Positions 1 to 20,812 of a stretch of DNA of 37,142 nucleotides are shown here, piece by piece (the stretch's first letter is position 1; every line of letters starts with the position of its first letter). The notes under the pieces were generated by a model. The model did not search any database. It saw only the letters and a program-made list of their open reading frames with translations, and was not told the DNA's origin. This DNA is from a virus. The position numbers were made by a program, and so were the translations under genes. The stretch spans positions 1-37,142 of the IMG/VR virus record IMGVR_UViG_3300045303_000121. One strand, written 5' to 3'.

Positions 1-167
1 AAATAGTCCAAAAACTTCCCAAAACCCTGTTTGTTCTCGTTCAGGATTGAGCACAGATACGAGGGGGTGACCGATACTTCCCTGCATACTGAAGCGAGAG
101 AGCGATTCTCTACAGCTGTGCGGAGAAGATTGCGGACTTCGGGTTCGGTAAGGTATCTGGTGCTCAT
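1..167 (-). CDS. Small helix-turn-helix DNA-binding protein, 3' end cut by window edge
   Basis: This frame is open from an ATG at 167 to the window edge (55 complete codons, no stop reached). The start overlaps the tnpB stop as ATGA, so translation is probably coupled to tnpB. The protein has an N-terminal helix (LTEPEVRNLL), then a helix-turn-helix-like stretch (SLASVCREVSVTPSYLCSIL) and then NENKQGFGKFLDYF. This order matches small phage Cro-like proteins, where SPSYLSxxLNG is followed by GxKxLxxLG. It probably binds DNA and may regulate its own operon, which is inference. The remaining C-terminus lies outside the window. Confidence 0.75.
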   Translation of the reverse strand, partial: MSTRYLTEPEVRNLLRTAVENRSLASVCREVSVTPSYLCSILNENKQGFGKFLDY

Positions 168-1255
168 GCTGCCACCACTAATGGCGAAAGCTCGTTCCCG
201 CGCACGGAGGCTCGACACCTGAGCCCGACAGTGAGAATGTTTTTCGCGGCATTGATGTCGCGATCATGCTCGGCTTCACAGGCCGCGCACTTCCACTGCC
301 TTACAACGAGCATGTCCAGACCCGTAGGGCCAGTTAAGGCTCCACAGCTGCTGCATGATCGCGTTGTGAATTTCTCATTAAAGACCTCGAAGCTTCTGCC
401 AGCACTTAGACTTTTGTAATGCAGAAACTTTTTGAGTATGCCCCAACCGGAATCCATGACGCTCTTTGCCATCTTGGTCTTCACTAGCTTGTTGCTGCTC
501 ACATCGCCAACGTAAATCGACTGATACTGACTCACAATCCGTGTGCTGAATTTATGCAGCGCGTCCTTTCTCTGCCGTGCAATCATGCGATGTATTCGCT
601 TAGCCTGCTTTTTGTGTCCTCTACGTTGCGCCATAGCTAAACGCTCGGCATGTCGCTGCGTCCATCGGCCTGCATCAAGGGTGTCGCCATCATTGGTTGT
701 CGCGATGGTTTTCAAGCCAAGATCAATACCCACAGCCTCTAGTGGCGCAATAGACTGCTTCACTAAATACTCAACCGGCAGGCACAGCCACCAATCACCG
801 CAACTATCCTCCGAAAAGCAGCCCTGCCGCCACTTTACGTCAGCAAGCCTGTCAGACTCAAACACGCGGAAAGTCTTACCGGCAAAGCGCAGTGAGTTGC
901 CTTTTCTTTTTAGGTTAACCGCCTTAAATGGCACCCAGCCCAGTGATCTGCGTGCTCCATTGCTTACGCGCCAGCGTAGCTTTTGTTTCTTTGCAAGAAA
1001 TCGCTTCTGCGCGTAATGAACGCAAATAGACTGTATCGTGGCCGAACCGATCTTCTCGAAATACTGCGCAGAACCAGCTGTGAGCAAACAAAGATCAAAA
1101 CCACTCATCCACTTCTTGTCTCTGTCAGTTCGCGTGATTGCTAGCAAGTTGGTCTCGTTACAGTAATTGAATACTGTATTGACCTCAGCCGCAGCCTCTT
1201 TAAGCCACGAATAGGCTTCAGCTCGAACCTTTAATCGCAAAACACTCGTACTCAT
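164..1255 (-). CDS. tnpB: TnpB-family RNA-guided nuclease-like protein with relocated RuvC-II glutamate
   Basis: This 363-residue protein belongs to the TnpB/OrfB family of IS200/IS605-type elements, whose active members are RNA-guided DNA nucleases. The RuvC-I motif GIDLGLKT carries Asp178, and the zinc ribbon has Cys301/304 and Cys323/326. The RuvC-III motif DRDINAAKNI carries Asp333. At the usual RuvC-II position (a Glu before Asp-Leu) it reads YVGDVSS, so the Glu is absent. A Glu294 in FNEKFTT just before the zinc ribbon could take over, a rearrangement described in some TnpB groups. The ATG at 1255 is chosen because GGAG lies upstream; a TTG four codons earlier is also possible. No tnpA and no space for transposon ends are seen. 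The gene sits in an operon, 34 bases after one gene and overlapping the next. Confidence 0.88.
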   Translation of the reverse strand: MSTSVLRLKVRAEAYSWLKEAAAEVNTVFNYCNETNLLAITRTDRDKKWMSGFDLCLLTAGSAQYFEKIGSATIQSICVHYAQKRFLAKKQKLRWRVSNGARRSLGWVPFKAVNLKRKGNSLRFAGKTFRVFESDRLADVKWRQGCFSEDSCGDWWLCLPVEYLVKQSIAPLEAVGIDLGLKTIATTNDGDTLDAGRWTQRHAERLAMAQRRGHKKQAKRIHRMIARQRKDALHKFSTRIVSQYQSIYVGDVSSNKLVKTKMAKSVMDSGWGILKKFLHYKSLSAGRSFEVFNEKFTTRSCSSCGALTGPTGLDMLVVRQWKCAACEAEHDRDINAAKNILTVGLRCRASVRGNELSPLVVAA

Positions 1256-1289
1256 CGCTTTACACAAGCTCCGTTGACTCTAGTGGGAT

Positions 1290-1469
1290 TCATTTCTTGA
1301 CAACCTTCAGTTCTATTCTTTCAATGCGAAACGAGGTATCTATTGGATACCGCATTATCAGTTGCTGATCGGCACATGCCTTGGTTGGATAGATAAAGGC
1401 CAGAAGAATAGTGCCTTCACCGGTAACAATCCCCCAGGCTCGCAAAATCTTTGTGCGCTTATTCCACAT
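1290..1469 (-). CDS. Small phage protein of unknown function (59 aa)
   Basis: This 59-residue protein starts at an ATG (1469) that overlaps the end of the upstream 56-aa gene by 11 bases. It begins MWNKRTKILRAWGIV and continues with a short beta-rich stretch, consistent with a small one-domain protein. An in-frame TTG four codons earlier is less likely. It lies directly upstream of tnpB and is probably cotranscribed with it. I do not recognise a function. Confidence 0.6.
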   Translation of the reverse strand: MWNKRTKILRAWGIVTGEGTILLAFIYPTKACADQQLIMRYPIDTSFRIERIELKVVKK

Positions 1470-1629
1470 CGTCAATCTCAAAGATTCGAATCGTGTCGCC
1501 AGGAGACAATACCCAGCTCTCCATCGCGTCTTTTATCTGGTTTGACAGGTCTTCATCATCGGCAAAGTCTGGAATGATGGCAGAGGCTAACTCACCAGCG
1601 CCGCCATCTAGAACTACTTTAGTTTGCAT
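1459..1629 (-). CDS. Small acidic protein of unknown function (56 aa)
   Basis: The ORF begins with ATG at 1629 behind a purine-rich GGGAG site and encodes 56 residues. The protein is acidic, with clusters such as DFADDEDL and FEIDDVE, and contains SPGDTIRIFEID. Its end overlaps the start of the 59-aa gene, which suggests translational coupling. It is the first gene after a 92-base gap holding a likely promoter (1662-1690), so it probably leads the tnpB transcript. Its function is unknown. Confidence 0.6.
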   Translation of the reverse strand: MQTKVVLDGGAGELASAIIPDFADDEDLSNQIKDAMESWVLSPGDTIRIFEIDDVE

Positions 1630-1661
1630 CCCCGCCGCTCCCGTTTGTTTAACCTGTTGAG

Positions 1662-1690
1662 AGTGTAATGACGTTTACGGTAAATGTACA
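1662..1690 (-). promoter_or_regulatory. Predicted sigma70 promoter with operator-like dyad, upstream of the tnpB operon
   Basis: Read on the minus strand there is a -35-like TGTACA (1685-1690), a 17-base spacer and a -10-like TACACT (1662-1667); each box matches the consensus at 4 of 6 positions. The spacer holds an 11-base dyad, TTTAC-G-GTAAA (1674-1684). A dyad between the two boxes is a classic place for a repressor. It would drive the 56-aa, 59-aa, tnpB and HTH genes. Confidence 0.4.
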
Positions 1691-1721
1691 GGACTATTTA
1701 TTCCGCAGTGCGTCAATGTGA

Positions 1722-1976
1722 CTAATTCATCAGTTCGCGGCATGGAAGCTCAACCGAGCGCGGATCATCAGCGCGCCCGGCTGTAGTGACTGCAACCCTT
1801 AGCTTGCATTTGTCGCACGTCACAACGTAGTAGCCGCAGCGCTTCGCAGGATAAGGAAGTTTTGCAATGCATTTATGGGCCACGGATAAGTCAAGCTGAA
1901 TATCCTTACCGGCTGGATAATCTGGATCAGGCGCACACTTTGGCTCGCGTCCTAAGTCTTCCCATTCGACTTTCAT
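1722..1976 (-). CDS. Conserved phage hypothetical protein with Cys pairs (84 aa)
   Basis: This 84-residue protein has an N-terminal WEDLGREPKCAPDPDYPAG motif. Its central segment, AKRCGYYVVTCDKCKL, contains Cys residues that could form a zinc knuckle. The C-terminal AGRADDPRSVELPC recurs in small phage proteins I have met, but I know no function. Its start overlaps the stop of the upstream HAD gene by four bases, so both are probably translated together. A 92-base gap separates it from the next gene. Confidence 0.7.
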   Translation of the reverse strand: MKVEWEDLGREPKCAPDPDYPAGKDIQLDLSVAHKCIAKLPYPAKRCGYYVVTCDKCKLRVAVTTAGRADDPRSVELPCRELMN

Positions 1977-2389
1977 GGCACATCACCGCCTGAGATGGCT
2001 TTTAAGCGCATATCGTGCTTGTACGGCTTGAATGCATCGACCGACTTCATGGCGGGCCACACGCCATCAAAGCGCATTGCACGATCATCAATGGTTAGAA
2101 TTGCTGGCGGTTTGAATCGTGTAAAGCGTACATCGCAAAAGCTTGGCCCCATGCAATCCCATTGATTCCCAGCATGCTTCATCAACCAATTGCGCATGGC
2201 TCGAATGCCGCCAAAGTAGCGCGCCCTAGAGCTATGGATAACCACATCCCAGTCGGCGCTCAGAGCTTCGCTGATGAAGTCCAAAGCGCCAGGCATAGGC
2301 GGATCTGGGATATTCCTTGCGCCCTTCCAGCCGCTCACGTAGCTATGGATAACACCATCAAAGTCTAAACATAAAATTCGTTTGCTCAT
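1973..2389 (-). CDS. HAD-superfamily phosphatase-like protein
   Basis: The 138-residue protein opens with LDFDGVIH, the HAD motif I with nucleophile Asp9 and Asp11. Motif II is probably VIHSSRAR (Ser53/54), and motif III/IV is the TIDDRAMRFDG segment with Asp101 and Asp102. HAD enzymes of this size include small phosphatases and the 3'-phosphatase half of polynucleotide kinases. The substrate cannot be told from sequence. A nucleotide or DNA-end phosphatase role would suit a phage. It is coupled on both sides by ATGA overlaps. Confidence 0.72.
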   Translation of the reverse strand: MSKRILCLDFDGVIHSYVSGWKGARNIPDPPMPGALDFISEALSADWDVVIHSSRARYFGGIRAMRNWLMKHAGNQWDCMGPSFCDVRFTRFKPPAILTIDDRAMRFDGVWPAMKSVDAFKPYKHDMRLKAISGGDVP

Positions 2390-2541
2390 TTCCTCACCTT
2401 CCTCTTAGTCCACAAATACGTTTGCACCAAAGCGCGATAGTGAATCAATCCACGAGCGGTGCCCCATTTCTTCTTGCAATCGAGAATGTGACGGCGGTAT
2501 TGCGTCATCACTAACCTAGGATCGCCAGGATGCTCGATCAT
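2386..2541 (-). CDS. Small basic protein of unknown function (51 aa)
   Basis: This ORF starts at ATG 2541 and ends with a TGA that overlaps the HAD gene's ATG. It encodes a very basic 51-residue protein rich in Lys, Arg, Tyr and Trp (for example DCKKKWGTARG and TYLWTKRKVRK). The charge suggests nucleic-acid contact, which is inference. The overlaps on both sides support it as a real gene even though it is short. Confidence 0.55.
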   Translation of the reverse strand: MIEHPGDPRLVMTQYRRHILDCKKKWGTARGLIHYRALVQTYLWTKRKVRK

Positions 2542-2585
2542 GTGGATTCGCGTTCTTCGTGAGTGAGGAATTTAGATTCGTTCAT
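2538..2585 (-). CDS. Possible 15-residue coupling ORF
   Basis: A 15-codon ORF (MNESKFLTHEEREST) starts at ATG 2585, overlapping the stop of the 88-aa gene. It ends at a TGA overlapping the ATG of the 51-aa gene. Both junctions are ATGA. It may be a real micropeptide or only a device that carries ribosomes from one gene to the next. The perfect double overlap is its only support. Confidence 0.3.
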   Translation of the reverse strand: MNESKFLTHEEREST

Positions 2586-2848
2586 GACTTAGCTTTCCTC
2601 CCTTCATCAAATCCACGCATGAGCGAACTCGCAAACCAGCTAATCATCCATCCTTCATCGATCTGTTCGCCATTCTCGTCCTTGAAGCCGTGCTCATTCG
2701 CGACCTTGCAAAATGCCTTGGCCCAGTCGCGCGCATCAAAGGACGGCAGCGGCCAATCGGGCCGATCCTGTGGCAGAGTGTCCTTGTTAGCCAGCTCAAA
2801 CTCTAAATGGTCGCCATTGTGAATCATCATTTTTGTTTCCTCAGTCAT
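2582..2848 (-). CDS. Phage protein of unknown function (88 aa)
   Basis: This 88-residue, mostly alpha-helical and acidic protein contains WPLPSFDARDWAKAFCKVA near its middle and WMISWFASSLMRGFDEG near the end. It lies 7 bases after the stop of the 44-aa basic gene and overlaps the next ORF by four bases. I do not recognise a family. The Trp-rich C-terminal half could form a small hydrophobic core. Confidence 0.6.
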   Translation of the reverse strand: MTEETKMMIHNGDHLEFELANKDTLPQDRPDWPLPSFDARDWAKAFCKVANEHGFKDENGEQIDEGWMISWFASSLMRGFDEGRKAKS

Positions 2849-9246: not shown

Positions 9247-9392
9247 AATTCGATTACGGTAAATACAACCCCGCTCCCGCTAAGCGCAAGACAGGTAAGA
9301 GCGCGTTTCTACGCAAGCTCGAAAAAGCACAGCGCAAAGAGATCGAATCGCGGGCCACGGTCACGGAATTGAAACAGAGGAAGAAAGCATGA
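9243..9392 (+). CDS. Small basic protein (49 aa)
   Basis: The 49-residue ORF lies exactly between the DUF551 gene and the ERF gene, with ATGA overlaps at both ends. It is Lys/Arg-rich (APAKRKTGKSAF, LRKLEKAQRKE, TELKQRKKA). Placed before a recombinase, it may help bind DNA, but this is inference. Confidence 0.6.
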   Translation: MKFDYGKYNPAPAKRKTGKSAFLRKLEKAQRKEIESRATVTELKQRKKA

Positions 9393-10051
9393 GTGAGCAA
9401 AGTGAGTCGATTAACGAACTGGCGACGGCGCTAGCGAAAGCACAGGGTAAGATTACCGGCGCCTTGAAGGACTCGGCTAATCCGTTCTTTAAGTCAAAGT
9501 ACGCAGATCTTGCGGCCTGCTGGGATTCCTGCCGCCTGCCGCTCTCTGAGAACGGCCTTAGCGTTATCCAGGTGCCTGCGGCCGATGAACAAGGGGTAGT
9601 CCTTACGACGATCCTAGCCCACGCTAGCGGCCAATGGATCAAGAGCATGCTACGGATGGTTCCCAAGGATGGCAGCCCTCAATCCGTGGGGTCTGCGCTG
9701 ACTTACGCCCGTCGCTATGCCCTGGCAGCAATGGTGGGCTTGGCTCAGGTGGATGACGATGGCAATGCGGCCAGCGGCAAGGGAAACGACCCACGAGGCG
9801 AGATAAATGCCGAGCCTGCCGAGGTTAAGGCTTGGGTATCCAAAATCGCCGACATGAAATCAACAGACCTGGACGAGTTCGGCCATGCTGCGGCGGCATT
9901 TAAGATTCACGAAGAACTTAACCGCGATCAAGAGCTATACATTGCGGTGGCCGACGAGATTGCAAAGCAAGGGATATTCAGCAAGAAGAATTGGAAGGAC
10001 TTAATCAATCTACACAAGGCAAAGAACGGCGGGCCTGGCGCTAGAAATTAA
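9389..10051 (+). CDS. erf: ERF-family single-strand annealing protein
   Basis: This 220-residue protein carries the ERF signature: NPFFKSKYADLAACWDSC near residues 32-49, then GLSVIQVP, then TTILAHASGQWIKS. It continues with GSALTYARRYALAAMVGLAQ and a DDDGNA segment. ERF proteins anneal complementary single strands in phage recombination and genome circularisation. The C-terminal third is a variable helical region. The next genes (NinB-like and Ref-like) complete a recombination module. The start overlaps the small basic gene as ATGA. Confidence 0.9.
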   Translation: MSEQSESINELATALAKAQGKITGALKDSANPFFKSKYADLAACWDSCRLPLSENGLSVIQVPAADEQGVVLTTILAHASGQWIKSMLRMVPKDGSPQSVGSALTYARRYALAAMVGLAQVDDDGNAASGKGNDPRGEINAEPAEVKAWVSKIADMKSTDLDEFGHAAAAFKIHEELNRDQELYIAVADEIAKQGIFSKKNWKDLINLHKAKNGGPGARN

Positions 10052-10464: not shown

Positions 10465-10601
10465 GCGGCATGCAATACAGAATAAAGAAAGGCTTCTGCC
10501 CATTTATGTGCGGTGGAGTACTTCGCACGTCATTTGTGAATGGCGGGGTTCGTGGCAAGACCTGCTATAAATGCGGTGTGTTGGTGTTGGTGGCGGCATG
10601 A
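10461..10601 (+). CDS. Small Cys-rich protein (46 aa)
   Basis: A 46-residue ORF coupled by ATGA overlaps to both neighbours. It has Cys13 and Cys17 (CPFMC) and Cys38 and Cys41 (CYKC), spaced to bind one zinc ion. It is likely a small zinc ribbon in the recombination module. Confidence 0.55.
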   Translation: MSGMQYRIKKGFCPFMCGGVLRTSFVNGGVRGKTCYKCGVLVLVAA

Positions 10602-10957
10602 AGCGCGGGAAGTCAACGGGGAAACCGACGAAGGCAGAAGCCTCGCGGATGGCAGAAATAAAAGCGATGACATGCATAGCTTGCGAGATAGGTAACGCGG
10701 TCTATCGCTTCAGTCAGGTAGAGGTTCACCATATTGTTGACAAGGGATACCGAAAGCACTCAGGCGGACATATGGCAACCCTACCACTTTGCAGTTTTCA
10801 CCACAGAGGCGAGCCGCCGTACAACTGGACGGTAAGTGAAGCGACAGAAATGTTCGGCCCGTCATTCGCGTTACAGAAGCGTAAGTTCGTCGCTAAGTAC
10901 GGCACCGAGCGTGAGCTTCTCGCCATCATCGACAAACGACTACAGAGAACATCATGA
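10598..10957 (+). CDS. Ref-like HNH nuclease (RecA-dependent family)
   Basis: From ATG 10598 the protein has 119 residues. It has a Cys26/Cys29 knuckle, the motif VEVHHIVDKGYRKHSGGH, then TLPLCSFHHRGEPP and a C-terminal ALQKRKFVAKYGTERELLAIID. This order of HH, LC..HHRG and F...YG.E.ELL matches the Ref (recombination enhancement function) nucleases first known from phage P1, which cut displacement loops made by RecA. Location after ERF and NinB-like genes fits. A longer upstream frame is rejected because of the ATGA overlap. Confidence 0.8.
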   Translation: MKRGKSTGKPTKAEASRMAEIKAMTCIACEIGNAVYRFSQVEVHHIVDKGYRKHSGGHMATLPLCSFHHRGEPPYNWTVSEATEMFGPSFALQKRKFVAKYGTERELLAIIDKRLQRTS

Positions 10958-12983: not shown

Positions 12984-13119
12984 ATTGAATCCGAACGTTT
13001 TTCTAGCTGGATGCACGCGTAACCCAGAGAGCCTCAGAGAGATTGCTAGATACGCAATCTACGGAATTGTTATGGCTGCTATTCTCGCTGGCTGCACTGA
13101 GGTATTACTTTTTATTTAG
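12967..13119 (+). CDS. Small membrane protein at the end of the early operon (50 aa)
   Basis: The ATG at 12967 gives 50 residues ending in a hydrophobic helix (YGIVMAAILAGCTEVLLFI). It is the last plus-strand gene, and its final 15 bases overlap the end of the convergent late gene. A longer frame starting at 12883 is rejected because it lies inside the previous gene. Confidence 0.5.
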   Translation: MKYRTELNPNVFLAGCTRNPESLREIARYAIYGIVMAAILAGCTEVLLFI

Positions 13120-14277
13120 CGTTAGGGTGCCTACGCGGGTGTTTGTGAGCGTATCTACGACAGCGTAAGACGTGGTAGCTGGCGGGACTGGTTGGGGCGC
13201 CTGGGCGGACCAGAGACGGCGTAGTAGGGTCATTTTGTCGGCTCTTACGGTCAGCGGGTTGCCTTCCATGATTGCACCAGAGTCGGGAGAATTTACATAG
13301 GCCCAAAAAAACGATGAGGTGATGCCCTTAGCTATGAGGTAATCGACCCACGCATCGGCCCACACCTTGTCTTGACCTGTATAGGTCGATCCCCACTCAC
13401 TTGGGCAGACCGCGAACTTTGGGGAGAGGAATCCAAACAACGTTTCCCAGTCAGCGGCAAGGTTCTTTGGAAAGGTTGGCGCGGAGAAAGACGCCTTATT
13501 CCATACGTGGGGCCCATATGTGTGCGCGCAAAAAACTAACTTATCCGCTCTAATGCTGAGCGGTGAGTAAGCCTGCGGCTGTAAATTCTCGCCCCAATTT
13601 TCCTCTACTGCTTTCTCGACGCCATCCCAGTTAGCGGTTATACCTTGGACAAATATTAACAGGTTGGGGTTGGCGCCTAAAATAGCGTTTGCGGCAGACT
13701 CAGCTAGCGGCTTCCATTGAGCATCGCCACCTGTGGTCCAGCGCACTCGATCATGCGGCTCGTTGAAAATATCAATAGCTATGAAGCGCGGTAAGTGTGC
13801 ATAGCGTTTTGCAACGAAGCATAAATCACGAACCCAATCTTCCGTAGTATACGGCTGGCCGTTCCACGTCTCGACCCACTTGCCTTTGCCGTATTCGTTG
13901 GGATCTGTTACGAACGGATGAAAGTATTGGTTAACGGCGCTGACGCTGTGAAAATCTAGCAGGATGTAAAGCCCTAAGCGATCTGCCTCAGCCATCCACA
14001 TATCTAGCATTTGCAGTGGCGACTTGCCGATTAGGTCGTCATTCAGCGGAATCATGAAGCTGTCTACGCCCTTCGCGGCGTAGAGCGTGTCAGGAACGAA
14101 TGGACAGCGAATGGCGTTAAAGCCCAGTGATTTTATGTGCGCTAGCTGTTCCTTCCAGCCCTGCACCCAAAGCATCATTGGCTTCAGTATTTTGTCATTG
14201 AATCCATAGTGATTTACCCCTCTAAGCTGTATAGGGGTGCCGTTTTCGAGTATCGAGCCGCCCTTCGTCGTGAACAT
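13105..14277 (-). CDS. GH5-family cellulase-like glycoside hydrolase
   Basis: This 390-residue protein has the GH5 pattern: LRGVNHYGF (residues 18-26), GFNAIRCPF (52-60), LYILLDFHS (103-111), then FIAIDIFNEPHD with acid/base Glu173. AHTYGPH (251-257) follows, then CPSEWGSTYT with nucleophile Glu294 and a late FFWAYVN. GH5 enzymes cut beta-1,4 glucans such as cellulose and related polymers. No signal peptide is seen, so it would be released at lysis or carried on the virion. It is the last gene of the late operon, one base after a small membrane-protein gene, and ends in a Thr-rich tail. A polysaccharide depolymerase role is inference. Confidence 0.85.
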   Translation of the reverse strand: MFTTKGGSILENGTPIQLRGVNHYGFNDKILKPMMLWVQGWKEQLAHIKSLGFNAIRCPFVPDTLYAAKGVDSFMIPLNDDLIGKSPLQMLDMWMAEADRLGLYILLDFHSVSAVNQYFHPFVTDPNEYGKGKWVETWNGQPYTTEDWVRDLCFVAKRYAHLPRFIAIDIFNEPHDRVRWTTGGDAQWKPLAESAANAILGANPNLLIFVQGITANWDGVEKAVEENWGENLQPQAYSPLSIRADKLVFCAHTYGPHVWNKASFSAPTFPKNLAADWETLFGFLSPKFAVCPSEWGSTYTGQDKVWADAWVDYLIAKGITSSFFWAYVNSPDSGAIMEGNPLTVRADKMTLLRRLWSAQAPQPVPPATTSYAVVDTLTNTRVGTLTLNKK

Positions 14278-20136: not shown

Positions 20137-20176
20137 GATATACTCCTATAACTGGATTAAGTATATGCGGGGAAAT

Positions 20177-20812
20177 ATGCCAATTCGTAAAACCGTTACC
20201 GGTCTTGTTTTTGGGCGACTGACGATCCTTGATGAAGGCGGTGATTGCCCTCGCTACGTTAACTGCATGTGTAGTTGTGGATCGAAAAAACTTATCAGAC
20301 TGAACCATATTACTCACGGAAAAATAAGTTCTTGTGGCTGCATAAGAGCCGAGCTTTCGGCGGAACGCGCCGCCCACATGCGAGAAAGCCTTGATTTTCA
20401 CGGACTGTCTGGATCGAAGGCTTATGGGGTTTGGTGTGCAATGAAGCAGCGGTGCCTCAATAAAAATAACCGAGCTTTCAAAGATTATGGTGGGCGTGGC
20501 ATTACTATTTGCAAAGAATGGCTTAATTCTTTTGAATCCTTTTTTTCTGACATGGGAGAGCCGACCAATAATCTCACGCTTGATAGGATCGACAATAGTA
20601 AAGGCTATTCTAAAAATAATTGCGAGTGGCGCACACGAAAGCAACAGCAGCGCAATAGGCGCACTAACCGCTTGCTTAAATATAAAGGAGAAACAAAGAC
20701 GGTTGTTGAGTGGGCTGAAGCTATTGGTATGAAGCAAAAAACCTTCGCAAATAGAATTTGCAGCGGATGGACTATAGAACAAGCTATAGAAGTCCCTCTT
20801 CTTAAAAGGTAG
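20177..20812 (+). CDS. HNH/AP2-type homing endonuclease, inserted on the opposite strand
   Basis: From ATG 20177 the protein has 211 residues. A Cys-rich N-terminus (NCMCSCGSKKLIR, SSCGCI) is a zinc ribbon. The core YGVWCAMKQRCLNKNNRAF, then YGGRGITICKEWLNSFESF, then LTLDRIDNSKGYSKNNCEWRT, then RNRRTNR is the usual phage homing-endonuclease block. The end (TKTVVEWAEAIGMKQKTFANRI) is an HTH-like DNA-binding tail. Such genes insert site-specifically and move between phages. It runs against every neighbour and lies at a tail-fibre start. A longer frame from 20099 is rejected because it overlaps the fibre. Confidence 0.88.
   Translation: MPIRKTVTGLVFGRLTILDEGGDCPRYVNCMCSCGSKKLIRLNHITHGKISSCGCIRAELSAERAAHMRESLDFHGLSGSKAYGVWCAMKQRCLNKNNRAFKDYGGRGITICKEWLNSFESFFSDMGEPTNNLTLDRIDNSKGYSKNNCEWRTRKQQQRNRRTNRLLKYKGETKTVVEWAEAIGMKQKTFANRICSGWTIEQAIEVPLLKR

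What the first reader, a model, noticed from the sequence alone, without database searches (positions are those of the whole stretch)
164..1255. TnpB-like protein with the RuvC-II glutamate missing and a candidate replacement 44 residues later
RuvC-I (Asp178), the four zinc Cys and RuvC-III (Asp333) are intact, but the RuvC-II position reads YVGDV instead of the usual E-D-L. Glu294, just before the zinc ribbon, is in a place where ordinary TnpBs carry Pro. A relocated Glu is known in part of the TnpB family, so the protein may still cut DNA. If not, it could be a DNA-binding repressor like the nuclease-dead TnpB relatives (TldR) that phages carry.
Basis: partly seen in the sequence, partly recalled or inferred. 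Interest (0 to 1): 0.75.

Follow-up and report, generated by a model that had tools for sequence, protein, structure and literature searches.

The report
Phage TnpB nuclease with relocated glutamate
A phage carries an RNA-guided DNA-cutting protein whose catalytic glutamate sits in a second position that is already described, so it is probably a working nuclease; the mildly new point is that this copy seems to have lost the transposon end it would need to move.

Summary
The 363-aa TnpB (164-1255, minus) has D178, G250 where ISDra2 has its RuvC-II Glu, E294 seven residues before the first zinc Cys, four Cys and D333. It is not a broken protein: of 127 aligned rows, 119 have G250 with E294, six have Glu250 with Arg/Lys at 294, two are a fragment and an apparently frameshifted copy. 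This is the published "E-alt" site (PMC10711439, passages seen); E294 aligns with a Glu of mimivirus Fanzor2 (PDB 9b0l). So it is a new member of the prokaryotic D-Phi-G/E-alt TnpBs, probably a competent nuclease and not a dead TldR-type repressor. Activity is inferred, and no pocket distance was measured.

Less expected: the window copy and its sister L264 show no transposon left end to a profile that finds it in many relatives (the profile also misses some), and their omega-RNA is about 50 nt shorter than in 20 others. One omega-RNA hairpin covaries in 23 of 23 rows. Rough dN/dS between the two is 0.14. An immobile, retained tnpB-omegaRNA cassette is a lead, not shown.

The parts
164..1255 (-). 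tnpB coding sequence, ATG start, 363 aa plus stop (a TTG four codons upstream, 1267, is also possible)
   Evidence: NF040570 guided_TnpB 183 bits against cut-off 100; Pfam PF07282 and PF01385 above their cut-offs
722..724 (-). codon of Asp178, RuvC-I, DLG (the D-Phi-G form)
   Evidence: D in 125 of 127 rows, gap in 2
506..508 (-). codon of Gly250 at the ordinary RuvC-II Glu position
   Evidence: aligned to the ISDra2 Glu; G in 120, E in 6, gap in 1 of 127 rows
374..376 (-). codon of Glu294, alternative RuvC-II Glu, directly after the strand 288-293 and before the zinc ribbon
   Evidence: E in 120, R in 5, K in 2 of 127 rows; strand position from the model; aligned to Glu467 of 9b0l
278..355 (-). 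zinc ribbon, Cys301/304/323/326
   Evidence: PF07282
257..259 (-). codon of Asp333, RuvC-III
   Evidence: aligned to the ISDra2 Asp; D in 122, E in 1, gap in 4 of 127 rows
209..225 (-). omega-RNA hairpin inside the tnpB 3' end (5 bp counted)
   Evidence: 115 of 115 cells paired in 23 rows, 48 double changes against 14.7 in shuffles, 0 of 500 shuffles reach it
191..199 (-). conserved omega-RNA core GGGAACGAG
   Evidence: alignments
159..186 (-). shortened omega-RNA 3' part: small hairpin and conserved end (G-G-x-G-G-C-x-G-C-ATGAGCACC), overlapping the tnpB stop (166-164)
139..158 (-). candidate guide: first 20 nt after the conserved scaffold end (boundary inferred from where relatives stop agreeing)
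3..167 (-). next phage ORF, starting on the ATG that overlaps the tnpB stop; 55 codons seen, cut by the contig end, no family match
1256..2755 (-). stretch upstream of tnpB searched with a profile of the relatives' left end: no match

Best explanation
The gene encodes a TnpB of the prokaryotic D-Phi-G/E-alt group of IS200/IS605-type elements. Its RuvC site is made of D178, E294 and D333: the RuvC-II Glu is supplied from the loop between the last RuvC strand and the zinc ribbon, not from the strand end (now Gly250). It most likely binds an omega-RNA folded from the last ~85 nt of its own coding strand, takes the adjoining phage sequence as guide, and cuts double-stranded DNA that carries a motif next to the guide match. 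Shown: residue pattern, its conservation, fold, RNA hairpin covariation. Inferred: metal binding by E294, cutting, guide boundary. Unknown: the motif next to the target.
For: G250+E294 in 119 of 127 rows and a clean swap with Glu250+Arg/Lys294 in 6; D251, the only acidic neighbour of the old site, is not conserved (D 78, N 46), so it is no substitute; E294 is as invariant as D178 and D333. The Glu250 rows are split from the others by a branch with SH-aLRT 100. AlphaFold2 model with mean pLDDT 90.8 places E294 right behind strand 288-293, where PMC11423790 (passages) places the Fanzor Glu; in SpuFz1 Glu541 coordinates Mg2+ with D383, N385, D606 (PMC10432273, passages). Best structural matches tie: mimivirus Fanzor2 9b0l Z 25.4 (rmsd 3.5, 336 aligned) and ISDra2 TnpB 8exa Z 25.3 (2.5, 304). 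Sequence alignment puts E294 on Glu467 of 9b0l in a shared NE..TT..CS.CG motif. Relatives at about 45% identity are mobile: 13 loci of one Sphaerotilus MAG and one of another share ends but not flanks; 9 of 196 loci have a divergent neighbouring ORF with a DHVHL motif typical of Y1 TnpA (motif search only). Rough dN/dS 0.14 to the sister.
Against: No cleavage data for this protein or any of the aligned relatives that I know of. Pocket geometry was not measured because model coordinates are not readable here. Thermodynamic folding of the omega-RNA is no better than shuffles (window z 0.50 and -0.32; L264 0.15; L267 0.11; L186 -1.63) and Rfam has no match. The dN/dS rests on dS 1.4, near saturation; other pairs were saturated. 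A first model from 5 sequences was poor.
Confidence: 0.8

Rival explanations
1. Nuclease-dead, RNA-guided DNA-binding repressor (TldR-like) of the phage.
For: It sits in a phage, no tnpA is seen next to it, and the left end is not detected. The ordinary RuvC-II Glu is absent.
Against: TldR is defined by an inactivated RuvC (PMC13418256, passages); here D178, E294 and D333 are all kept and E294 is invariant wherever position 250 is Gly, except in frameshifted L066. The sequence after the scaffold end differs between the window and its sister L264, whereas a repressor would be expected to keep its target (inference). No flagellin, CsrA or other regulated-gene partner was looked for beyond the listed ORFs.
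Confidence: 0.08
2. An ordinary, recently inserted IS1341-type passenger (tnpB only) with no role for the phage; missing left end and short omega-RNA are decay or divergence.
For: The family is mobile in bacteria and several copies in one MAG are intact or decayed. The profile misses L199 and L220, in which an end-like hairpin is visible by eye, so 'none' for the window can be a miss; an inverted repeat at 1335-1351 lies about where relatives have their left-end hairpin. Of 79 HAD loci only L106 has tnpB in the same place.
Against: Open frame, full triad, dN/dS about 0.14 to a sister that also lacks a detectable left end; the HAD, Cys-rich ORF and tnpB stand in the same order and orientation in both, which suggests residence since before they split.
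Confidence: 0.4
3. Retained phage cassette: an immobile but nuclease-competent TnpB used as an RNA-guided homing or exclusion nuclease, its guide being the start of the next phage gene.
For: All five short-RNA copies lack a detected left end, against 3 of 17 long-RNA copies (Fisher p 0.002, hand-made classes, not corrected for kinship); short RNA needs at least 3 changes on the tree. In 7 of 22 viral copies, against 0 of 9 genome copies by the same reading (longest 88 aa), the ATG overlapping the tnpB stop opens an ORF that is over 100 aa or runs off the contig.
Against: Few copies; L207 was put in the short class by eye although its ORF reads on; no relative of the next gene and no tnpB-free target site was found; no control for the ORF count.
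Confidence: 0.25

Closest known systems
Prokaryotic D-Phi-G/E-alt TnpB clade (defined in PMC10711439)
   Same: DLG in RuvC-I, Glu with exactly six residues before CxxC, zinc ribbon and RuvC-III Asp, no Glu at the ordinary position
   Different: Nothing in the protein; the left end is not detected and the omega-RNA is shorter than in 20 other compared copies
Fanzor2 (mimivirus L79, PDB 9b0l)
   Same: Fold (Z 25.4) and the NE..TT..CS.CG motif with the alternative Glu
   Different: Fanzors and pro-Fanzors have DPG in RuvC-I (PMC10711439); here DLG. About 16% identity, and a phage gene
ISDra2 TnpB (8exa, 8h1j, 8bf8)
   Same: Domain plan, fold (Z 25.3 and 25.1), both Asp, zinc Cys
   Different: Glu at the ordinary position and Pro where the window has Glu294
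TldR, phage-borne dead TnpB relatives (PMC13418256)
   Same: TnpB-derived, encoded by phages, RNA next to the gene
   Different: TldR has an inactivated RuvC; here the triad is complete

Membership tests
TnpB (RNA-guided endonuclease family) | whole-protein match to the curated family model | tested here: met
   NF040570 183 bits, cut-off 100; the narrower exception models NF038281 and NF038280 score below their cut-offs (132.1 of 425, 77.9 of 350)
D-Phi-G/E-alt TnpB | Asp-hydrophobic-Gly in RuvC-I | tested here: met
   D178-L179-G180
D-Phi-G/E-alt TnpB | Glu six residues before the zinc ribbon, none at the ordinary place | tested here: met
   pattern match at 294; Gly250
D-Phi-G/E-alt TnpB | groups apart from Glu250-type TnpBs on a tree | tested here: met
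   83-row quick tree, branch 100 by SH-aLRT; only 6 Glu250 rows, several with long branches, and the two trait columns were not removed
Fanzor or pro-Fanzor | DPG in RuvC-I | tested here: not met
   DLG
TldR | inactivated RuvC triad | tested here: not met
   D178, E294, D333 present; rests on E294 being the catalytic Glu
TldR | guide directs repression of a promoter | not testable with these tools
   needs an assay; the 22-mer after the scaffold has no exact match in viral contigs
IS200/IS605-type mobile element | left end upstream of tnpB | tested here: inconclusive
   no profile match in 1.5 kb upstream, but the profile misses at least L199 and L220, which look end-like by eye
IS200/IS605-type mobile element | right end with omega-RNA | tested here: met
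   conserved hairpin, core and scaffold end
RNA-guided nuclease by activity | cuts guided DNA | not testable with these tools
   no assay

The most novel reading that the evidence does not exclude
Phages have more than once stripped E-alt TnpB elements of their transposon left end and of the distal omega-RNA stem-loop, keeping a minimal tnpB-omegaRNA cassette joined by an ATGA overlap to the next phage gene, whose first codons then serve as the guide. The result would be an immobile, cutting-competent, self-templated homing or exclusion nuclease aimed at rival phages that carry that gene without the cassette.
Probability: 0.2. Interest if true: 0.65.

Novelty: new member of a known kind. Interest (0 to 1): 0.3.

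Why it matters
It shows that absence of the ordinary RuvC-II Glu is a poor sign of a dead TnpB: an annotator who scores only that position would call this whole clade inactive and inflate the count of TldR-like repressors. It also offers small phage-borne E-alt enzymes (about 363 aa, omega-RNA of well under 100 nt if the boundary is right) on which one can test whether the relocated Glu lowers collateral cutting, as PMC10711439 suggests for Fanzors. If the stripped-cassette reading holds, it would be a nuclease-competent counterpart to TldR domestication.

Tried and rejected
D251 as substitute catalytic residue: rejected, D in 78 and N in 46 of 127 rows. A sequencing or frameshift artefact: rejected, the frame is open and the pattern is shared by the clade. 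A shallow AlphaFold2 model from 5 sequences was useless (pLDDT 41.5). A regular-expression scan for left ends gave false hits near start codons (for example L009, L077, L272) and was replaced by a profile, trained on 12 copies; beyond the training copies and their duplicates it finds at least 12 more, and gives nothing for the window, L264, L189, L199, L204, L207, L208, L209, L211, L212, L015, L016 and L220, a score of only E 1.5 for L202, and L013 has too little upstream DNA. Search for the next gene's relatives and for the exact 22-mer guide in viral contigs found nothing, so no empty site could be shown. Rfam and tRNA searches found nothing. PADLOC gives Cas12f-type hits, expected for any TnpB; the repeat finder lists none in 1-1700, so no CRISPR array there. 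The phage collection has 359 records with a TnpB match, 4 covering 80% or more of the query, none above 60% identity. Rows dropped before counts: one search dropped 7 duplicate loci and loci not reaching residue 300 (78 kept plus window); one search started from 196 loci and dropped frames with stops, those not reaching residue 300 and duplicates (126 kept plus window); the covariation set left out L011 and L013 (insert), L008, L015 and L212. Papers: PMC10711439 passages and one section; PMC10432273, PMC11423790 and PMC13418256 passages only; the rest only as search listings. Altae-Tran 2023 and Wiegand 2024 are not held; what I say of TldR comes from PMC13418256 or recall.

Full report
What was checked. 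The ORF at 164-1255 (minus) encodes 363 aa and belongs to the TnpB family: NF040570 with 183 bits against a cut-off of 100, Pfam PF07282 and PF01385, PHROG 506. Alignment to ISDra2 TnpB puts Gly250 on its RuvC-II Glu and Glu294 on a Pro.

Is the missing Glu special to this protein? No. I collected relatives from viral contigs and species genomes (best 80 of 84) and aligned 126 distinct frames with the window. Position 250 and 294 vary together: Gly/Glu in 119 of 127 rows, Glu/Arg in 5, Glu/Lys in 1; the last two are L083 (a fragment with Glu294) and L066 (Gly250, then apparently out of frame). D178 is Asp in 125 and D333 in 122 rows, the rest being gaps except one Glu at 333. The acidic neighbour D251 is Asp in 78 and Asn in 46, so it cannot be the replacement. 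On an 83-row quick tree the Glu250 rows lie on one side of a branch with SH-aLRT 100; there are only six, some with long branches, and the two columns were left in.

What the position is. PMC10711439 (passages) defines E-alt as a Glu six residues before the zinc finger, in contrast to E-can about 50 residues upstream, and divides E-alt sequences into a DPG clade (Fanzors and cyanobacterial pro-Fanzors) and a D-Phi-G clade. The window fits its published pattern at 294 and has DLG. The AlphaFold2 model from 98 sequences has mean pLDDT 90.8 and pTM 0.79; Gly250 is in the strand 244-251 and Glu294 follows the strand 288-293. PMC11423790 (passages) puts the Fanzor Glu on the loop between the fifth strand and the TNB domain, and PMC10432273 (passages) shows SpuFz1 Glu541 among the Mg2+ ligands. 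The model's best structural matches are mimivirus Fanzor2 (9b0l, Z 25.4) and ISDra2 TnpB (8exa, 25.3; 8h1j, 25.1), which tie. In sequence, Glu294 aligns to Glu467 of 9b0l within a shared NE..TT..CS.CG. I could not read model coordinates, so no distance was measured.

Omega-RNA. The 3' end of the gene and the bases after it are conserved as RNA. A 5-bp hairpin (209-225) pairs in 115 of 115 cells over 23 rows with changes on both sides in all five pairs; sliding it by one to three columns drops pairing to 34-47%. It is followed by GGGAACGAG and ends in a conserved stretch around ATGAGCACC, after which relatives stop agreeing. The tnpB stop lies in that end, so almost all of the scaffold is inside the coding frame. 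Against this, the folding energies are no better than shuffled sequence for window, L264 and L267, and only z -1.63 for L186.

Mobility. At about 45% identity the family is mobile: 13 loci in one Sphaerotilus MAG and one in another share element ends with different flanks; 12 of the 14 show the left boundary and 13 the right one. Nine of 196 loci have, beside and divergent from tnpB, an ORF with a DHVHL motif typical of Y1 transposases (motif only, typical by recall). Near relatives share a left end with a hairpin. A profile of it from 12 copies finds at least 12 further copies down to 52% protein identity, but nothing in 1.5 kb upstream of the window gene or its sister L264. Results against: the profile also misses L199 and L220, in which a similar hairpin is visible by eye, and the window has an inverted repeat at 1335-1351 at about the right distance, so a diverged end is not excluded.

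Short RNA. From 50 nt before the core to the scaffold end, the window has 94 nt and L264 93 nt, against 135-153 nt in the 20 other copies measured. L204 and L208 are short as well (35-39 nt from core to stop), and L207 by eye. None of these five has a detected left end, against 3 of 17 long ones (Fisher p 0.002; hand-made classes, L202 counted as lacking, relatedness not corrected). The tree needs at least 3 changes for the short form. Window and L264 are sisters (SH-aLRT 99), share the order HAD - Cys-rich ORF - tnpB (78, 62 and 73% identity) and differ with dN/dS about 0.14, dS 1.4. Of 79 HAD loci only L106, which is the L264 contig, has tnpB in that place; L129 has a 60% copy some 6 kb away and L160 a distant one.

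Guide. The bases after the scaffold end (139-158) are the first codons of the next ORF, which begins on the ATG overlapping the tnpB stop and is cut by the contig end. The sister has unrelated bases there. In 7 of 22 viral copies that ATG opens an ORF over 100 aa or running off the contig; in 9 genome copies the longest is 88 aa. There is no chance control for this. No exact guide match and no relative of the next ORF were found in viral contigs.

Verdict. A new member of a known kind: a D-Phi-G/E-alt TnpB, probably a working RNA-guided nuclease. The dead-repressor reading is unlikely. The stripped, retained cassette is the interesting remainder and needs more sister genomes and an assay.

Noticed in passing
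window 1973-2389 and 1722-1976 (minus): A HAD-like protein followed by an 84-aa Cys-rich ORF; the Cys-rich ORF is also found in 6 of the 79 fetched HAD loci (L106, L113, L131, L134, L163, L174). Pfam match of the HAD protein is below its cut-off.
   Followed up: partly
window 13105-14277 (minus): Glycoside hydrolase family 5 (PF00150, E 2.1e-34) among the phage genes.
   Followed up: no
window 10589-10957 (plus): RecA-dependent nuclease of the Ref type (PF16786), next to an Erf-like annealing protein at 9389-10051.
   Followed up: no
window 20156-20812 (plus): A plus-strand ORF among minus-strand structural genes that looks to me like a free-standing homing endonuclease; no Pfam match.
   Followed up: partly
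MN737551.1 26652-27707 (fetched as L273 from NC_070846.1): The TnpB of Salmonella phage LPSTLL is annotated as a putative head morphogenesis protein in the GenBank record and as transposase in RefSeq.
   Followed up: no
L207, L204, L208 right ends: Three further viral copies with a shortened omega-RNA end and no detected left end, apart from window and L264 on the tree.
   Followed up: partly
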